Assembly: GCF_016801985.1 (NCBI RefSeq) | Contig: NZ_JAEVLS010000001.1 | Coordinates: 1 to 64,000 of the forward strand | Direction of reading: 5' to 3' | From: Steroidobacter gossypii | GTDB lineage: Bacteria > Pseudomonadota > Gammaproteobacteria > Steroidobacterales > Steroidobacteraceae | DNA length: 64,000 bases | Part shown: piece by piece, positions 14,754 to 40,742 of the stretch | How positions within the stretch are numbered: the first letter of the stretch is position 1 | How the letters are laid out: every line of letters starts with the position of its first letter | Program-made: the position numbers and the translations under genes | Notes under the pieces: model-generated | The model's input: the letters and a program-made list of their open reading frames with translations, nothing else | What the model was told of the DNA's origin: nothing | Database searches by the model: none

Positions 14754-16978
14754 TCCGTGGTGCGACCGAACCGTTCTGGGGACCGCGACAGCCCGTCCAG
14801 TACATCGCGTACTTTCGAGGCGAGATCGGCGTAACTGAACGGCTTGGTGATCAGTTGCACACCTTTGTCGAGACGCCCGTGATGAAAGATGGCATTGCGC
14901 GCGTAGCCGGTTGTAAAAAGAACTTTGATGCCCGGACGAAGCGCTTGCACCTGAGCCGCCAGTTGCGCACCGGTCATCCCGCCGGGCAGCACCACGTCGG
15001 TGAATAACAAGTCGACCGGCCCGGCGGTTTCCAACAGCCGCAGCGCCGACGGTCCGTCTGCCGCTTCCAGAACGCAGTAACCAAGATCGCGTAGTGCGTC
15101 GACCGAGTAGGCTCTCACGGCCGCTTCGTCCTCGACGACCAGCACAGTTTCCTGCGATGTGCCTTCTGGGATGGGCATGGCCGGCGCGGCGTCGCTCTCC
15201 GAGCTCGCAGCTTCGAATCGCGGCAAATAGATCTTCACGGTGGTTCCCTGCCCGACCTCGGAATAGATCTTGACGTGTCCGCCGGACTGTTTCACGAACC
15301 CGTAGACCTGACTCAGTCCCAAGCCCGTTCCCTGTCCGACCGGTTTCGTCGTAAAGAAAGGCTCGAAGGCACGTTTGAGAGTTTCCGCGTCCATTCCCAT
15401 CCCCGTGTCGGAGATGCAGATCAGCACGTACTGACCGGGTGCGACTTCGGCGTGCGATATCGCATACGCCTCGTCGATGTACGCGTTCACCGTTTCGATG
15501 GTGAGCCTGCCGCCGTGAGGCATGGCATCTCGCGCGTTCACAGCGAGATTGAGGATCGCGGATTCGAGCGCGTTGGGATCGACTTCGATTTTCCACAATC
15601 CTGCGCCGCGCACTGTTTCGACAGCGATGGTCTCGCCCAGCGAGCGGTTCAGCAGGTCTGCCATGCCACCCACGAGTGAATTGACGTCCGTCGGCTTCGG
15701 GTCGAGCGGCTGCCGGCGAGAGAAGGCAAGCAGCCGCTGGGTCAAGGACGCCGCCTGGCGTGCACCGTTCAGTGCCTGTTCGACGGATCGCTGGACACGG
15801 CCTGCGTCTGCAGGCACCAGCCGACGCACTACGTCCAGGTTGCCGACAATCACCTGAAGAATGTTGTTGAAGTCATGAGCAACACCGCCGGTGAGCTGCC
15901 CAACGGCTTCCATCTTTTGCGCTTGGCGGACCATTTCCTCCGTGGCTCGCAACTGCTCGGTGCGCTCAGCAATCGTGCGCTCGAGATTCGCATTGAGGTT
16001 GCGCAGCGCCTCCTGCGCACGGGTCCTCTCTGCAATCTCTTGTTGGGCCGCGCGCGCTAGATGAACATTGTCGATCGCGACGGCGGCTTCGGCGGCGAGA
16101 CCAGCCATCCCACGCTCCGACCTTTCTGTAAAGACGCCCACGGCAGCGTGCCCGAAAAAGAGCCCGCCGAGTACTCTGCCGTCGCGACCGATAACGGGGA
16201 CGGCGAGGTAGCTACGAACGGGCAAATGTCCTTCAGGCATCCCTTTGTGGGGCTCATTCTGTCCGTAGCGCGCGTCCTGTGTGATGTCGTCCGAGCGGAC
16301 AATGCCTTCACCGTTGAACGTGGGCGCGAACACCTTCGTGTTTCGCGGCATTGGGAACTTGGCGAACGCCTCCGCGGGCACCCCTGAAAGCGTATAGAGC
16401 ATGTAGCTTTCGCCACGCTCGTTGAGAACGTTGTAGAAGAACGCGCCGAACTGAGCGCCGGTCAGCTCGACTCCCGCATCGGTCACGGTCTGAACGAGCC
16501 GCTGCAGATCTGTCTCGCGGCCGAGCGACGCCCCAGCTCGATTGAGTATCTCCAGCGCGCGGCGATCTTCCCGAACCGCCAGCTCGGCAGCACGCTGTTG
16601 CGTGCGATCGCGCAGAACCTTCACGAACCCAACGATCTCACCCTGCTCGGTGATCGGCGTGAGTTCGCCGGCCGCCCAGAACTGGCTTCCATCTTTGCGG
16701 AGGCGCCAGCTCTCCTCGCCCCCGCCACGGCCGTGGTCGACGGCATCGGCGATCTCGCGCTCGAGCTGCGAGGCACCCGCCGGGAAGATGCGCTCCAGCG
16801 TTTGGCCCAGCATCTCCGGCTCACTCCAGCCAAGAATACGGGTCGCGCCAGCATTCCAGCTGGTGACGCGTCCGCTCCGGTCGATACTGATGATCGCCGT
16901 GTCTAGTGCGCTGTTGACGATTTGTCGCCACTGGGACGCCGAAATAGCATCAGCGTTGCCAGCGTGAATATCTTGCAT
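14750..16978 (-). CDS. Hybrid sensor histidine kinase (PAS-GAF-HisKA-HATPase-receiver)
   Basis: A protein of 742 residues with no membrane segment. Order: PAS (about 12-130), GAF (about 145-320), coiled-coil linker (325-355), HisKA with His368 in GVAHDFNN, HATPase_c (about 470-590; DTGMGM and GTGLGLSQVYGF), and a C-terminal receiver with phospho-acceptor Asp661 (LLFTDVVLPGG) and the ITKPF lysine. It should phosphorylate its own receiver and act in a phosphorelay; no partner phosphotransfer or output protein is adjacent. Confidence 0.9.
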   Translation of the reverse strand: MQDIHAGNADAISASQWRQIVNSALDTAIISIDRSGRVTSWNAGATRILGWSEPEMLGQTLERIFPAGASQLEREIADAVDHGRGGGEESWRLRKDGSQFWAAGELTPITEQGEIVGFVKVLRDRTQQRAAELAVREDRRALEILNRAGASLGRETDLQRLVQTVTDAGVELTGAQFGAFFYNVLNERGESYMLYTLSGVPAEAFAKFPMPRNTKVFAPTFNGEGIVRSDDITQDARYGQNEPHKGMPEGHLPVRSYLAVPVIGRDGRVLGGLFFGHAAVGVFTERSERGMAGLAAEAAVAIDNVHLARAAQQEIAERTRAQEALRNLNANLERTIAERTEQLRATEEMVRQAQKMEAVGQLTGGVAHDFNNILQVIVGNLDVVRRLVPADAGRVQRSVEQALNGARQAASLTQRLLAFSRRQPLDPKPTDVNSLVGGMADLLNRSLGETIAVETVRGAGLWKIEVDPNALESAILNLAVNARDAMPHGGRLTIETVNAYIDEAYAISHAEVAPGQYVLICISDTGMGMDAETLKRAFEPFFTTKPVGQGTGLGLSQVYGFVKQSGGHVKIYSEVGQGTTVKIYLPRFEAASSESDAAPAMPIPEGTSQETVLVVEDEAAVRAYSVDALRDLGYCVLEAADGPSALRLLETAGPVDLLFTDVVLPGGMTGAQLAAQVQALRPGIKVLFTTGYARNAIFHHGRLDKGVQLITKPFSYADLASKVRDVLDGLSRSPERFGRTTD

Positions 16979-18906: not shown

Positions 18907-19299
18907 TCATGACGCCTGTCTCCTTGGGCGAACGACAAACCAAAAGCACGCGCCGGCCAAGAAGCCCACCGGCAGCGAGACCGAGCACAAGTTAGCGAAC
19001 CCCTGTATCCATGTCACATTCCTACCGGGCGGAAGAATCAAAGCAGTAAGAAGCGAGAGTAGAAATGCAGAGGCGACACCGAGCAAAGCCAGGGCCGGAA
19101 AGTTCGTCCACCGCCACCGCTCAAAGAGCAGAACCGCTGGGAGTGCGATCAGGAGCGCGCCGACGTACCCGCTGAAAGCCAAGAACGATAACGCAGAAGT
19201 TGCTACATCCACGCTGCTACTTCTGATACCGAAGAAGAGCGCCCCTATCATTGCCGACGCAAAGGGAGCAACGACGAAACCTAAGAGCTTCCTGTTCAT
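18907..19299 (-). CDS. Cassette-encoded membrane protein
   Basis: A protein of 130 residues with four predicted transmembrane helices (about 5-25, 35-58, 65-90, 100-125) and a short basic tail (RPRRQAS). The start codon lies directly next to an attC core (GTTAGCGC then ATG), with no room for a normal ribosome site, as in many cassettes. Function unknown. Confidence 0.6.
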   Translation of the reverse strand: MNRKLLGFVVAPFASAMIGALFFGIRSSSVDVATSALSFLAFSGYVGALLIALPAVLLFERWRWTNFPALALLGVASAFLLSLLTALILPPGRNVTWIQGFANLCSVSLPVGFLAGACFWFVVRPRRQAS

Positions 19300-19363: not shown

Positions 19364-19729
19364 TCACTTTTTCGCATAGTGGTCAGCACCAAGAAAATGC
19401 AGGGACACGTAAGGGCTGCTGCCAACCACCCAACTGTCGTGAGGAATGGGTGGGATGTAGAACAACTCCCCCGCTTTCATTTCAATGACAGTGCCGTCGT
19501 CGAATGCCGCTGTTGCCGAGCCGGACAACACCATTCCAACGTGTTCGACGGAACAGCGAGTTGCTCCAACGGTGGGACCCACGTGTTCACTCCATTTCCA
19601 GCCCGGTTCGTAGGTGGCTCGACCGATAGTCATACCGCCCAGCCGAACGATCTCGAACTTACCCTTGACGAGCACCCGCGTCTCGTCAGGTGTCTCAAAC
19701 CGCTTGAGGATCACGTCTGGGGATTCCAT
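19364..19729 (-). CDS. Cassette-encoded cupin-domain protein
   Basis: A protein of 121 residues forming a single cupin barrel. Motif 1 is around WKWSEHVGP...CSVEHVGMVLSG (His ligands with a Glu-His pair), and motif 2 is around AGELFYIPPIPHDSWVVG. Such small cupins bind a metal and act as isomerases, dioxygenases or sugar-binding proteins; the specific reaction cannot be told. AGGAGG lies 8 nt before the ATG. Gene plus attC (19301-19361) is one leftward cassette. Confidence 0.75.
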   Translation of the reverse strand: MESPDVILKRFETPDETRVLVKGKFEIVRLGGMTIGRATYEPGWKWSEHVGPTVGATRCSVEHVGMVLSGSATAAFDDGTVIEMKAGELFYIPPIPHDSWVVGSSPYVSLHFLGADHYAKK

Positions 19730-19749: not shown

Positions 19750-19821
19750 GCCCAACGCCCACGCTGTACCGCGAGCAAGGGCGCTTCGTCCTGCGAGCCG
19801 GGCGCGCGCAGCGCGTTGGGC
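19750..19821 (-). repeat. attC of the SpeD-like cassette (minus orientation)
   Basis: Perfect outer cores on the minus strand: GCCCAAC (19821-19815) and GTTGGGC (19756-19750), 72 bp, with the inner GGCTCGCAGGACGAAGCGCC / GGGCGCTTCGTCC pattern shared with the array B sites. Confidence 0.75.
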
Positions 19822-19829
19822 CTCGATGA

Positions 19830-20186
19830 TCAAAACGGACAATGCTCCACTTCCTGGGCTCCAAAGTAGCTGCGCGTGAATTGACAAGCCGCCGCGACAT
19901 CAAAGCTCTTGCATGTGAAAAGCACCGTTGCAAAGAAGCGTTTCCTCGACCACACGTAGAGCGAGATCCCAGAGTCTATGAGCGGAATGAACGCGTCGAA
20001 GCCCTCATTGTCATCTTTCCCCGCACCACCAGGTGCATGCACGATCGGAGTTCCATAGGTTCGAAGGCCCAAATGCGCAGCGATACCGACCAGGTACTTC
20101 TCCACTGCCGAGCGATCCACATCGATCGAGTAGTAACCCTCGATCAGCAGCCGCTGACGAACGATGTCAGGCGCTAAGTCTCGCAT
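19830..20186 (-). CDS. SpeD-like (S-adenosylmethionine decarboxylase fold) cassette protein
   Basis: A protein of 118 residues whose C-terminal half follows the SpeD pattern: GFDAFIPLIDSGISLYVWSR and then FFATVLFTCKSFD. In true SpeD the chain is cut between Glu and Ser of ESHIS to make the pyruvoyl group, and a downstream Cys assists. Here the segment is DSGIS (Asp71-Ser72, with Gly in place of His) and the Cys is Cys92. The start at 20186 has GGGAG 6 nt upstream. It could decarboxylate another substrate or be inactive; the changed residues make classical AdoMet decarboxylase activity doubtful. Confidence 0.6.
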   Translation of the reverse strand: MRDLAPDIVRQRLLIEGYYSIDVDRSAVEKYLVGIAAHLGLRTYGTPIVHAPGGAGKDDNEGFDAFIPLIDSGISLYVWSRKRFFATVLFTCKSFDVAAACQFTRSYFGAQEVEHCPF

Positions 20187-20207
20187 TTTTGTCTCCCGTT
20201 GCATTCA

Positions 20208-20295
20208 GCCCAACGCTGCGCGTATCTACCGGCCAAAGCGCCTCGCTTTGCCCGTCGTGCGGGCGCAGCCCGCGAATTTGACGCGCTTGTCATGC
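20208..20295 (-). repeat. attC of the broken leftmost-reading cassette (minus orientation)
   Basis: Minus strand: GCATGAC ... GTTGGGC, 88 bp. The R'' core is perfect, the R' core degenerate. Confidence 0.55.
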
Positions 20296-21034: not shown

Positions 21035-21387
21035 CTAAAGCACACGATCGAAGCGGGGCGCAGGGTACGCGATCTTGCGACTGCGGCTCTTCTCCGCCAC
21101 CGCAGGCAAGCGCCTCCTCAGATCCAAAGCCGCGGCGCCGAGCCGCCGCGGGGGGCGGAATGGATCTGGGGCCTCTCGGGATCGTTTTGAACGGACTGAC
21201 GACTCTCCGCCGCGATTCAGCACGTGTGTGTAGATCATCGTCGTCTCTACATTTGCATTGCCCAGAAGCTCCTGGACCGTGCGGATGTCATAACCTGATG
21301 CGAGCGAATGAGTGGCGAAATTCGTAGCAGCTCACGCACCTGGCCAAGCAGCCGAGGCGATTTCCGCTCCTGCGAATCAGTCGACAT
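21035..21387 (-). pseudogene. intI: Integron integrase (IntI) remnant A, large internal deletion
   Basis: The minus strand starts with ATG 21387 (AGGAGG 6 nt upstream) and reads [20 protein letters not shown]. It then jumps, out of frame, to the C-terminal part [20 protein letters not shown] and [13 protein letters not shown]. The last stretch carries the catalytic Tyr (MIYTH) of IntI-type tyrosine recombinases. About 230 central residues are gone, including both catalytic Arg residues and the IntI-specific patch. It cannot function. It is followed on the right by an attI-like segment and array A. Confidence 0.85.
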
Positions 21388-21665: not shown

Positions 21666-21962
21666 ATGACTCAGCTATCGTGGCCGAATAGTAAGTACAC
21701 GTCTGTCTGGTACAGCGGAGCGGTTTATCGAGACCGGCCATGCAGAGTCCGAATGGGAGATGGTCACATTGAGGTCAGCTACGACGAGGATGACGGCCCG
21801 GTCCGTTATAGCGGAACGGAAATCGGCACGGGCCACTTCAGGCTTAAAAGCACAGAAGCCGAGGGCGAGGCGACGCTGCACATGTTCCCGGGCTCTAGAA
21901 TCATGGAGGGGTACTACGTGGAGCGAGGTGAAAGTGGGCTGTGGCGTATCGAACTCGCCTAA
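21666..21962 (+). CDS. Array A cassette 1: hypothetical protein
   Basis: A soluble protein of 98 residues, acidic, apparently all beta (VRMGDGHIEVSYDEDDGPVR, then GTGHFRLKSTEAEGEATLHM and a C-terminal YYVERGESGLWRIELA). GGAG lies about 7 nt before the ATG. It is the first cassette after attI and therefore probably the last acquired and best expressed of this array. No family recognised. Confidence 0.6.
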   Translation: MTQLSWPNSKYTSVWYSGAVYRDRPCRVRMGDGHIEVSYDEDDGPVRYSGTEIGTGHFRLKSTEAEGEATLHMFPGSRIMEGYYVERGESGLWRIELA

Positions 21963-37672: not shown

Positions 37673-38240
37673 TCAGGCGATAGTTTCGAACGGACTGACA
37701 ACTCCCCTGCCGCCGCGATTCAGCACGTGCGTGTAGATCATCGTCGTCTTCACGTCTGCATGACCCAGTAGTTCCTGGACCGTGCGGATGTCATAGCCTG
37801 ATTCGGGCAGATGAGTGGCGAACGAGTGGCGCAGCGTGTGAACGCTGGCGGGTTTGATGATGCCGGCTCTGCACTGCCTGACGAACCGCACGCTGCAGCG
37901 AGTCTTCCGGCGCATGATCACGCCGTTCTACGCCGGAGCGCGGATCGATGGAGCGACGTGTCGAAGGGAAAGCATACTGCCAGCCCCAGTGAGGATGGCG
38001 TTCAGCGCCTGGTTCTGCGTGGAAGCCGCGACATTGCGCATCACGGTTAAGTGCCTGAGAAACGCTGTGACCTCATCGGCGCCCATTTCGAGCGGATGGC
38101 GTTTGTCATGGAACAGAATGAATCTCTTGATCCACTGCACATATACTTGCTCAGTACGGATGCTGTAGTGGCGGATTCGTATCAGCTCACGCACTTGGTC
38201 AAGCAGCCGGCGAGTTTCGATCCTGCGAATCACGCGACAT
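37673..38240 (-). pseudogene. intI: Integron integrase (IntI) remnant B, frameshift and internal deletion
   Basis: The minus strand starts at ATG 38240 (MSRDSQDR) and is frameshifted within 10 codons. It continues as RRLLDQVRELIRIRHYSIRT, VYVQWIKRFILFHDKRHP and STQNQALNAIL. It then jumps over about 140 residues to [40 protein letters not shown] and [21 protein letters not shown] carries the second catalytic Arg and MIYTH the Tyr; the first Arg and the IntI patch are missing. It is clearly an integron integrase, dead, and better preserved than copy A. Confidence 0.9.
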
Positions 38241-40449: not shown

Positions 40450-40742
40450 TGACTATGCACAACCCTCCGCATCCGGGCGAGTTCATTGCCGCGGTCTACC
40501 TGGAGCCGAACAATCTGAGCGGCCGCGAGCTTGCGGCCACTCTCGGTGTATCTGCGTCCACACTCAATCGCATCCTGACCGGTAGCAGTTCGGTCAGTCC
40601 TGAAATGGCATTGCGCCTTTCTAAAGCGCTGGGTCGCTCTCCCGAGAGCTGGCTTGCGATGCAGTCTAGTTATGATCTGTGGCAGGCGAGACAGCATGTG
40701 AAACTCGGCAATGTGGGCAAGGTCAAGCTCACCGCTGCATAA
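40449..40742 (+). CDS. higA: HigA-type antitoxin (XRE helix-turn-helix)
   Basis: A protein of 97 residues. HPGEFIAAVYLEPNNLSGRE, then LAATLGVSASTLNRILTG and LSKALGRSPESWLAMQ is the VapI/HigA signature with its helix-turn-helix at about 25-50. It should neutralise HigB and repress the promoter at 40137 through the palindrome. ATG 40449 overlaps the toxin stop (TGATG); ATG 40455 is a possible alternative. The frame ends in the attC R' core. Confidence 0.85.
   Translation: MTMHNPPHPGEFIAAVYLEPNNLSGRELAATLGVSASTLNRILTGSSSVSPEMALRLSKALGRSPESWLAMQSSYDLWQARQHVKLGNVGKVKLTAA

What the first reader, a model, noticed from the sequence alone, without database searches (positions are those of the whole stretch)
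19830..20186. SpeD-like cassette protein with altered self-processing residues
The SpeD motif ESHIS reads DSGIS here, while Ser72 and Cys92 remain. The change at the cleavage Glu and the His suggests another substrate, a changed processing reaction, or loss of activity. A polyamine-enzyme fold as a mobile cassette is uncommon.
Basis: partly seen in the sequence, partly recalled or inferred. Interest (0 to 1): 0.6.

Follow-up and report, generated by a model that had tools for sequence, protein, structure and literature searches.

The report
Orphan SpeD-fold enzyme in integron cassette
A small gene carried on a mobile integron cassette belongs to an uncharacterised branch of the spermidine-enzyme (SpeD) family that keeps the cofactor-forming serine but has replaced the neighbouring working residues, so it probably does a different reaction from the known enzymes.

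Summary
In detail: window 19830-20186(-) encodes a 118-aa PF02675 (AdoMet_dc) protein whose ESH motif reads DSG, with Ser72 and Cys92 kept. AlphaFold2 (pLDDT 95) gives the Thermotoga SpeD fold (Z 14.2), and alignment puts Ser72 on pyruvoyl Ser63. The gene is very probably an integron cassette: an attC-like site lies just 3' of it, and a Lysobacter homologue is also a cassette. It is not a decayed SpeD. It belongs to a coherent branch found in many bacterial phyla, DPANN archaea and viral contigs, with Ser72 and Cys92 invariant in 71 of 71 full-length members. The diagnostic changes are His68 to Tyr77, Ser55 to Asp64 and His7 to Arg12. Neighbours hardly recur, and the host has no SpeE over cut-off but has SpeA and carboxyspermidine decarboxylase, so a role in spermidine synthesis is unlikely. 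Best reading: an uncharacterised SpeD-derived branch, probably still forming a pyruvoyl group but using a non-AdoMet substrate. The main rival is a non-processing protein. Neither processing nor activity could be tested. I found no description of this branch in the papers searched.

The parts
19830..20186 (-). 118-aa SpeD-fold protein of the DSG branch (P0001)
   Evidence: PF02675 32.3 bits; AF2 pLDDT 95.2; VIA Z 14.2 to 1tmi
19971..19973 (-). Ser72 codon, equivalent of Thermotoga Ser63 (pyruvoyl-forming)
   Evidence: alignment; codon; invariant 71 of 71
19974..19976 (-). Asp71 codon, equivalent of Glu62
   Evidence: D in 62 and E in 2 of 64 core members, E in 7 of 7 distant ones
19956..19958 (-). 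Tyr77 codon, equivalent of His68
   Evidence: Y in 62 of 64 core and 7 of 7 distant members, against His in 20 of 20 other PF02675 homologues
19995..19997 (-). Asp64 codon, equivalent of Ser55
   Evidence: D 62 and E 2 of 64 core members (C 6 and G 1 of 7 distant), against Ser or Thr in 20 of 20 other homologues
19911..19913 (-). Cys92 codon, equivalent of Cys83
   Evidence: invariant 71 of 71
20151..20153 (-). Arg12 codon, at the position of His7
   Evidence: this stretch lies in a bait peptide, so its invariance is partly by construction
19750..19821 (-). attC-like site 8 bases 3' of the stop codon (GCCCAAC ... GTTGGGC, 7 of 7 paired)
   Evidence: 76% and 74% identical to the attC-like sites at 40737 and 39175; the whole site folds end to end as a hairpin, but its inner part alone failed the stricter filter
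20208..20214 (-). GTTGGGC box marking the probable 5' boundary of the cassette
   Evidence: sequence; no good partner box was found upstream (by eye)
20193..20197 (-). GGGAG Shine-Dalgarno-like site
37682..38206 (-). broken integron-integrase gene (pieces matching 251-314, 209-270 and 1-73 of TIGR02249)
21188..21322 (-). integron-integrase remnant (267-310 of 315)
19364..19729 (-). next gene downstream, beyond the attC-like site: cupin protein
   Evidence: PF07883 27.4 bits, cut-off 27.2

Best explanation
The cassette encodes a member of an uncharacterised, horizontally spread branch of the class 1b SpeD superfamily, called here the DSG branch. Shown: the SpeD fold (by prediction); Ser72 and Cys92 at the pyruvoyl-serine and Cys83 positions; invariance of both; replacement of His68 by Tyr, Ser55 by Asp and His7 by Arg; an attC-like site beside the gene. 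Inferred: the protein still self-cleaves between Asp71 and Ser72, with Asp71 as the base that activates Ser72 and Tyr77 and/or Asp64 doing what His68 and Ser55 do in SpeD. It then uses the pyruvoyl group and Cys92 to decarboxylate an amino-acid-like substrate that is not AdoMet, acting as an accessory activity outside the host's spermidine pathway. Arg12 where SpeD has His suggests a pocket for an anionic group rather than adenine; this is a guess.
For: Fold: AF2 pLDDT 95.2, pTM 0.89; nearest solved structures are Thermotoga and Aquifex AdoMetDC, Z 14.2-13.1 over 105 residues; among the 50 entries shown, those outside the AdoMetDC/spermine-synthase/prozyme group score 7.2 or less. Active site: Ser72 and Cys92 in 71 of 71 full-length members although the bait peptides lay only in the N-terminal 18 residues. 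Branch: 64 core rows one side of a branch at 96/87; core, viral and Thermoprotei rows together 100/99 on a long stem (4.5 changes per column), apart from 20 other homologues. Purifying selection: pN 0.16-0.24 with pS 0.68-0.87 against six relatives. Not AdoMetDC for spermidine: in the host genome it is the only PF02675 match, SpeE has no match over cut-off, while nspC and SpeA are present. Asp-Ser: with PMC9992855. PMC3975893 (passages) says Thermotoga S55A was still activated and that Glu62 can act as general base, so losing Ser55 need not stop processing.
Against: No processing or enzyme assay exists. [quoted passage not shown] logo figure not seen); all 20 other homologues here keep His68. 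In the human enzyme S229A (Ser55 position) could not be activated and H243A (His68 position) was slow (PMC3975893); this branch lacks both. Two of 64 core members lack Tyr77 (Cys, Ala), so Tyr is not strictly needed. In PanD, Tyr58 was dispensable for activation, so a tyrosine is no proven substitute. Nothing in the neighbourhood names a substrate.
Confidence: 0.5

Rival explanations
1. A non-processing SpeD-fold protein: Ser72 and Cys92 are kept for binding or structure, and the protein acts as a ligand-binding or regulatory protein, like trypanosomatid prozyme/ADL.
For: His68 and Ser55 are both replaced in nearly all members; human S229A could not be activated and H243A was slow. Precedent: Leishmania ADL does not self-cleave and the Trypanosoma counterpart is an enzymatically dead regulator (PMC3686867, passages).
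Against: A prozyme needs an active AdoMetDC partner, but this host has no other PF02675 match, and 31 of 50 sampled genomes have one match or none, the one being an ordinary SpeD in one case. Ser72 and Cys92 are invariant in 71 of 71, unusual for a dead enzyme.
Confidence: 0.27
2. A changed end-point of the chemistry: Ser72 forms the ester by N-to-O shift, or remains a plain Ser-Cys-Asp-Tyr active site, and works without ever making a pyruvoyl group.
For: The lost His corresponds to human His243, whose removal slows activation and let the ester form be resolved (PMC3975893; PDB 1jl0 title). A largely invariant Ser/Cys/Asp/Tyr set is kept.
Against: No enzyme of this fold is known to me to work that way (recalled). 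Nothing here favours it over pyruvoyl chemistry.
Confidence: 0.1
3. It is a pyruvoyl L-arginine or L-ornithine decarboxylase of the SpeDA/SpeDC kind supplying putrescine.
For: SpeDA and SpeDC are SpeD-derived, spread by horizontal transfer and occur in DPANN archaea and candidate phyla (PMC10407285), a distribution like this one.
Against: Their authors expected His68 to be kept and give four diagnostic SpeDC residues (Gln, Thr, Phe, Tyr; exact columns not verified here). The host already has SpeA. No polyamine gene appeared among the recurrent neighbours.
Confidence: 0.09
4. It is a true but divergent AdoMet decarboxylase.
For: Pfam match over cut-off; Asp-Ser occurs in phiN3 SpeD, and a phiN3 AdoMetDC is reported to complement.
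Against: Far below the SpeD equivalog cut-off; His7, Ser55 and His68 all replaced; no SpeE over cut-off in the host and in 43 of 50 genomes (the cut-off is strict).
Confidence: 0.04

Closest known systems
Class 1b AdoMet decarboxylase SpeD (Thermotoga maritima, PDB 1tlu/1tmi/1vr7)
   Same: Fold (Z 14.2, 2.0 A over 105 residues), length, pyruvoyl Ser63 and Cys83 positions
   Different: 18% identity; His7 to Arg, Ser55 to Asp, His64 to Gly, His68 to Tyr; extra conserved N-terminus LAPxIxRQR; no SpeE over cut-off in the host
SpeDA and SpeDC (SpeD-derived arginine and ornithine decarboxylases, PMC10407285)
   Same: SpeD-derived, often without SpeE, spread by horizontal transfer among bacteria, DPANN archaea and phages
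   Different: Expected by their authors to keep Ser63, His68 and Cys83; this branch lacks His68 and was not found recurring beside polyamine genes
Trypanosomatid prozyme / Leishmania ADL
   Same: Altered AdoMetDC paralogue; non-processing possible
   Different: Ser72 kept; no AdoMetDC partner in this host; single-domain prokaryotic protein
Aspartate decarboxylase PanD
   Same: Small pyruvoyl enzyme with tyrosines and a hydroxyl residue near the cleavage site (PMC3975893)
   Different: Another fold (recalled); a comparison of chemistry only

Membership tests
SpeD/AdoMet_dc superfamily (PF02675) | Profile score over the curated cut-off | tested here: met
   32.3 bits against 25
SpeD/AdoMet_dc superfamily (PF02675) | AdoMetDC fold | tested here: met
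   AF2 model, Z 14.2 to 1tmi; predicted, not solved
AdoMet decarboxylase (SpeD, TIGR03330) | Equivalog score over cut-off | tested here: not met
   18.1 against 75.65 bits
AdoMet decarboxylase (SpeD, TIGR03330) | Processing and catalytic set Ser63, His68, Cys83 | tested here: not met
   Ser and Cys present, His68 is Tyr77
AdoMet decarboxylase (SpeD, TIGR03330) | SpeE partner in the genome | tested here: not met
   Best speE match 57.7 bits against 249.55; genome 97.6% complete; the cut-off is strict (4 of 14 controls pass)
AdoMet decarboxylase (SpeD, TIGR03330) | Decarboxylates AdoMet | not testable with these tools
   needs an assay
SpeDA/SpeDC | His68 kept, as the authors expect | tested here: not met
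   Tyr77, against PMC10407285 text (its logo figure not seen)
SpeDA/SpeDC | Four diagnostic SpeDC residues | not tested
   their columns are in a figure that I could not see
SpeDA/SpeDC | Arg or Orn decarboxylase activity | not testable with these tools
   needs an assay
Prozyme-like dead paralogue | Coexists with an active AdoMetDC | tested here: not met
   Only PF02675 match in the host
Prozyme-like dead paralogue | No self-cleavage | not testable with these tools
   needs purified protein
Integron gene cassette | Gene followed by an attC site | tested here: met
   19750-19821: 7 of 7 box pairing, similar to other window sites, whole site folds as a hairpin, though its inner part failed a stricter filter
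Integron gene cassette | Intact integrase in the genome | tested here: not met
   Ten matches, none over the TIGR02249 cut-off; those in the window are pieces

The most novel reading that the evidence does not exclude
A fourth activity of the SpeD fold: a trans-domain, mobile pyruvoyl enzyme that completes self-processing without the His68/Ser55 pair, using Tyr and Asp instead, and decarboxylates a substrate outside the polyamine pathway.
Probability: 0.42. Interest if true: 0.75.

Novelty: new variant of a known kind. Interest (0 to 1): 0.55.

Why it matters
Three activities of the SpeD fold are described (AdoMet, Arg and Orn decarboxylases), and Ser63, His68 and Cys83 are held to be its processing set. 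A conserved branch without His68 offers a natural test of which residues pyruvoyl formation really needs, and points to an unknown small enzyme that moves between bacteria, archaea and viruses, in at least two genomes as an integron cassette. A copy on an Acaryochloris plasmid is annotated as S-adenosylmethionine decarboxylase, which is probably misleading.

Tried and rejected
Neighbour association. First pass: 770 flanking ORFs from 84 loci; the largest cluster (7 loci) looks like ORFs antisense to the gene itself, judged from its example; the next were viral near-copies (5, 4 and 4 loci), GFA proteins (3 Nostoc loci and L067) and a sugar-epimerase-like cluster (4 loci). That ORF caller keeps the longest ORF and misses real genes in GC-rich loci, so I repeated it with all 2749 ORFs within 3 kb: no cluster exceeded 5 loci, and all three of 5 were viral near-copies. 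Pfam on ten nearby upstream genes and on 98 of 119 called neighbours gave no family in more than 3. One weak recurrence: a leuA gene directly upstream in L009, L025 and L068, 3 of 84 loci, two of them in related neighbourhoods; not judged significant.

PDB phmmer with the single protein gave one irrelevant weak hit; the profile was needed. A viral scan with P0001 alone confirmed no relative; a phage search with the viral variant found none, and with P0001 only two weak partial hits. Searches of the paper library for SpeD with integron terms (0), with orphan/DPANN terms (0) and by homologue phrases (15 of 67 papers listed) did not show this branch. PanD-type folds did not appear among the structural rows shown, which excludes nothing. 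The tree rests on 118 columns, and long branches meet, so its place among SpeD branches is not claimed.

attC counts alone are not above chance (window: 4 rows for 2 sites; five shuffles: 4, 0, 1, 0, 1). A relaxed scan gave 15 rows against 12, 3 and 10 in three shuffles and did not list the 19750 site, because its inner part folds asymmetrically (0.28 against a threshold of 0.5). The case for the site rests on its place, its 7 of 7 boxes, its end-to-end hairpin and its likeness to other sites. The site at 15898-16048 was set aside as probable chance.

Not done: a scan of the genome collection with the central motif as bait (cap reached), so N-terminal invariance is partly by construction. Rows dropped: 14 of 85 sequences under 110 aa (truncated, frameshifted or at contig ends) before the counts; one partial paralogue (L117) before the tree; A3 holds 55 of the 71.

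Full report
Observation. The ORF at 19830-20186(-) encodes 118 aa that match PF02675 over its cut-off (32.3 against 25 bits) but fall far short of the SpeD equivalog model (18.1 against 75.65). A profile of 58 family members aligned to the Thermotoga S63A structure 1tmi (E 0.036; 0.0056 to wild-type 1tlu) puts Ser72 on residue 63, Asp71 on 62, Gly73 on 64, Tyr77 on 68, Asp64 on 55 and Cys92 on 83, without gaps up to the Cys. The AlphaFold2 model from an alignment of 55 sequences has pLDDT 95.2 and pTM 0.89. The best solved matches are Thermotoga and Aquifex AdoMetDC (Z 14.2 to 13.1, 105 residues), then human spermine synthase and human, potato and trypanosome AdoMetDC or prozyme (Z 9.5-7.3); the other entries among the 50 shown score 7.2 or less (Foldseek).

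A family, not a wreck. tblastn found relatives on plasmids of Acaryochloris (69%), Nostoc (61%) and Halioglobus (42%). With these four as an alignment, the genome collection gave 71 loci and viral contigs 10. Of 85 sequences, 71 are 110 aa or longer. Among the 64 core members Ser72, Gly73, Trp79, Phe84 and Cys92 are invariant; residue 71 is Asp in 62 and Glu in 2; residue 77 is Tyr in 62; residue 64 is Asp in 62 and Glu in 2. In seven distant members (six viral, one from a Thermoprotei MAG) Ser72, Gly73, Tyr77 and Cys92 are invariant, residue 71 is Glu, and residue 64 is Cys in 6 and Gly in 1. The bait peptides lay only in the N-terminal 18 residues, so these central columns are not fixed by the search; the N-terminal LAPxIxRQRLLIEG partly is. 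Record titles name Pseudomonadota, Cyanobacteriota, Bacteroidota, Actinomycetota, Zixibacteria, Gemmatimonadota, Chlamydiota, Peregrinibacteria, Melainabacteria and Micrarchaeota, Nanoarchaeota and Woesearchaeota; many are MAGs, where binning can err, but isolates such as Lysobacter chinensis, Nostoc paludosum, Actinospica durhamensis and Chitinophaga rupis are included. Against six relatives pN is 0.16-0.24 while pS is 0.68-0.87, in four of six beyond correction: strong purifying selection.

What separates it from other SpeD homologues. In 20 other PF02675 homologues (18 from genomes that also carry the branch, two from phages; two are identical; their activities are not known except as told below), the Ser63, Cys83 and His68 positions are Ser, Cys and His in 20 of 20; position 55 is Ser or Thr in 20 of 20; position 7 is His in 18; position 64 is His in 18 and Ser in 2; position 62 is Glu in 16, Thr in 3 and Asp in 1. 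So His68 to Tyr, Ser55 to Asp/Glu (in the core) and His7 to Arg define the branch, whereas positions 62 and 64 vary elsewhere too. The single Asp62 is the phage phiM12 protein; phiN3 encodes the same Q-D-S-H, and PMC9992855 (passages) lists phiN3 among phages whose AdoMetDC restores spermidine to E. coli. I assume that the tested ORF is this one. The tree holds the 64 core rows together (96/87), joins them to the viral and Thermoprotei rows (100/99, stem 4.5) and leaves the 20 homologues on the other side of that branch; it has only 118 columns and long branches meet, so the nearest SpeD branch is unknown.

Genome setting. The host genome (7.1 Mb, 97.6% complete) has no other PF02675 match and no SpeE over cut-off (best 57.7 bits), but has carboxyspermidine decarboxylase (409.4 bits, just over the cut-off of 409.05) and biosynthetic arginine decarboxylase (399.7 bits on a 268-aa piece, over the NF003763 cut-off of 369; 365.9 on TIGR01273, under its whole-protein cut-off of 624.1). 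PMC10407285 names the carboxyspermidine route as a way to spermidine without SpeD. In 50 of the 71 genomes, SpeE is over cut-off in 7; 26 have some match at E 0.001; the cut-off is strict, since only 4 of 14 control genomes pass it. PF02675 has one match or none in 31 of 50; in one of these the single match is an ordinary SpeD. The gene is rare around its host: of 398 genomes of the phylum 3 match, the window itself and two weak partial hits (35% and 30% identity); of 200 in the family 3 match, none of them among the 13 listed genus mates. The family is probably Steroidobacteraceae: the same-family genome G478 holds its copy at the same place of a 14092-base contig as locus L009, so titled (inference).

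Cassette. Eight bases after the stop codon lies an attC-like site (19750-19821) with 7 of 7 pairing boxes; it is 76% and 74% identical to attC-like sites at 40737 and 39175 (score 86 and 80; best of 500 shuffles of the 40737 site 45). The whole site folds end to end as a hairpin, but its inner part alone does not fold symmetrically, so it failed the stricter filter. Counts of such sites in the window are not above shuffled sequence. The 5' boundary has a GTTGGGC box at 20208-20214, without a clear partner. Integrase remnants lie at 21188-21322 and 37682-38206; none of the genome's ten matches passes the integron-integrase cut-off. In Lysobacter chinensis (71% identical) the homologue starts 15 bases after a different 60-base attC with 7 of 7 pairing, and another (6 of 7) lies downstream: a second, separate cassette. 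It was the only one of 85 loci that passed that scan, so most members are not shown to be cassettes.

Neighbours. Recurrence is slight. Pfam on 98 called neighbours gave no family in more than 3. One hint: a 2-isopropylmalate synthase gene lies directly upstream on the same strand in L009 and L025, and 340 bases upstream in L068; L009's belongs to another LeuA type than the other two, so two origins are likely, but 3 of 84 is too few to build on.

Mechanism. PMC3975893 (passages) states that in Thermotoga SpeD the S55A mutant is still activated and that Glu62 can act as the base that activates Ser63; that human S229A (the Ser55 equivalent) could not be activated; and that human H243A is slow and allowed the ester form to be resolved. 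Asp71 could keep the Glu62 role; the missing function is that of His68. Tyr77, Asp64 or both may supply it (inferred). Invariant Ser72 and Cys92 favour a working pyruvoyl enzyme over a dead one; the prozyme model lacks a partner in this host. I put working pyruvoyl chemistry on a non-AdoMet substrate at 0.5, a non-processing protein at 0.27.

Novelty. PMC10407285 (abstract, all of Results, first of two parts of Discussion read) describes SpeD, SpeDA and SpeDC; its authors expected Ser63, His68 and Cys83 to be conserved in all three, and mark them in a figure that I could not see. I found no description of the DSG branch in that text or in the listings, which cover open-licence papers only. It is a new variant of a known kind.

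Noticed in passing
L010:2164-2223 and 2833-2892 (Lysobacter chinensis): The Lysobacter homologue is itself an integron cassette, with a 7-of-7 attC immediately upstream and a 6-of-7 one downstream.
   Followed up: yes
L079-L088 and L140-L146 (IMG/VR contigs, some held twice): A viral sub-branch (about 30% identical) reads mostly ESG followed two places on by His (such as ESGIHIYAW); the six full-length rows counted keep Tyr77 and Cys92 and have Cys where the core has Asp64.
   Followed up: partly
L132 (phage phiN3) and L130 (phage phiM12): Phage SpeD proteins with Asp-Ser-His at the cleavage site; phiN3 is reported to encode a working AdoMetDC.
   Followed up: yes
window 21188-21322 and 37682-38206, minus strand: Broken integron-integrase pieces, with attC-like sites on the plus strand at 21957, 23314, 24965, 39175 and 40737: remains of one or two chromosomal integrons.
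   Followed up: partly
window 18907-19299 and 19364-19729, minus strand: Two further genes downstream that may be cassettes: a small protein that looks by eye like a membrane protein and a cupin protein.
   Followed up: no
L009:33-1064, L025:2990-4549, L068:4045-5664: A leuA (2-isopropylmalate synthase) gene upstream of the homologue in three genomes, of two different LeuA types. By eye an Asd-like gene lies downstream in L009 (not confirmed by search).
   Followed up: partly
L008:5594-5908: A small protein that looks by eye like an SMR transporter (SugE/Gdx type) follows the homologue, and an EthD-like gene precedes it; not searched.
   Followed up: no
G431 (archaeon nzgw56, locus L041): Six PF02675 matches in one 1.6-Mb archaeal genome, including one reading ESS instead of ESH (L111).
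   Followed up: no
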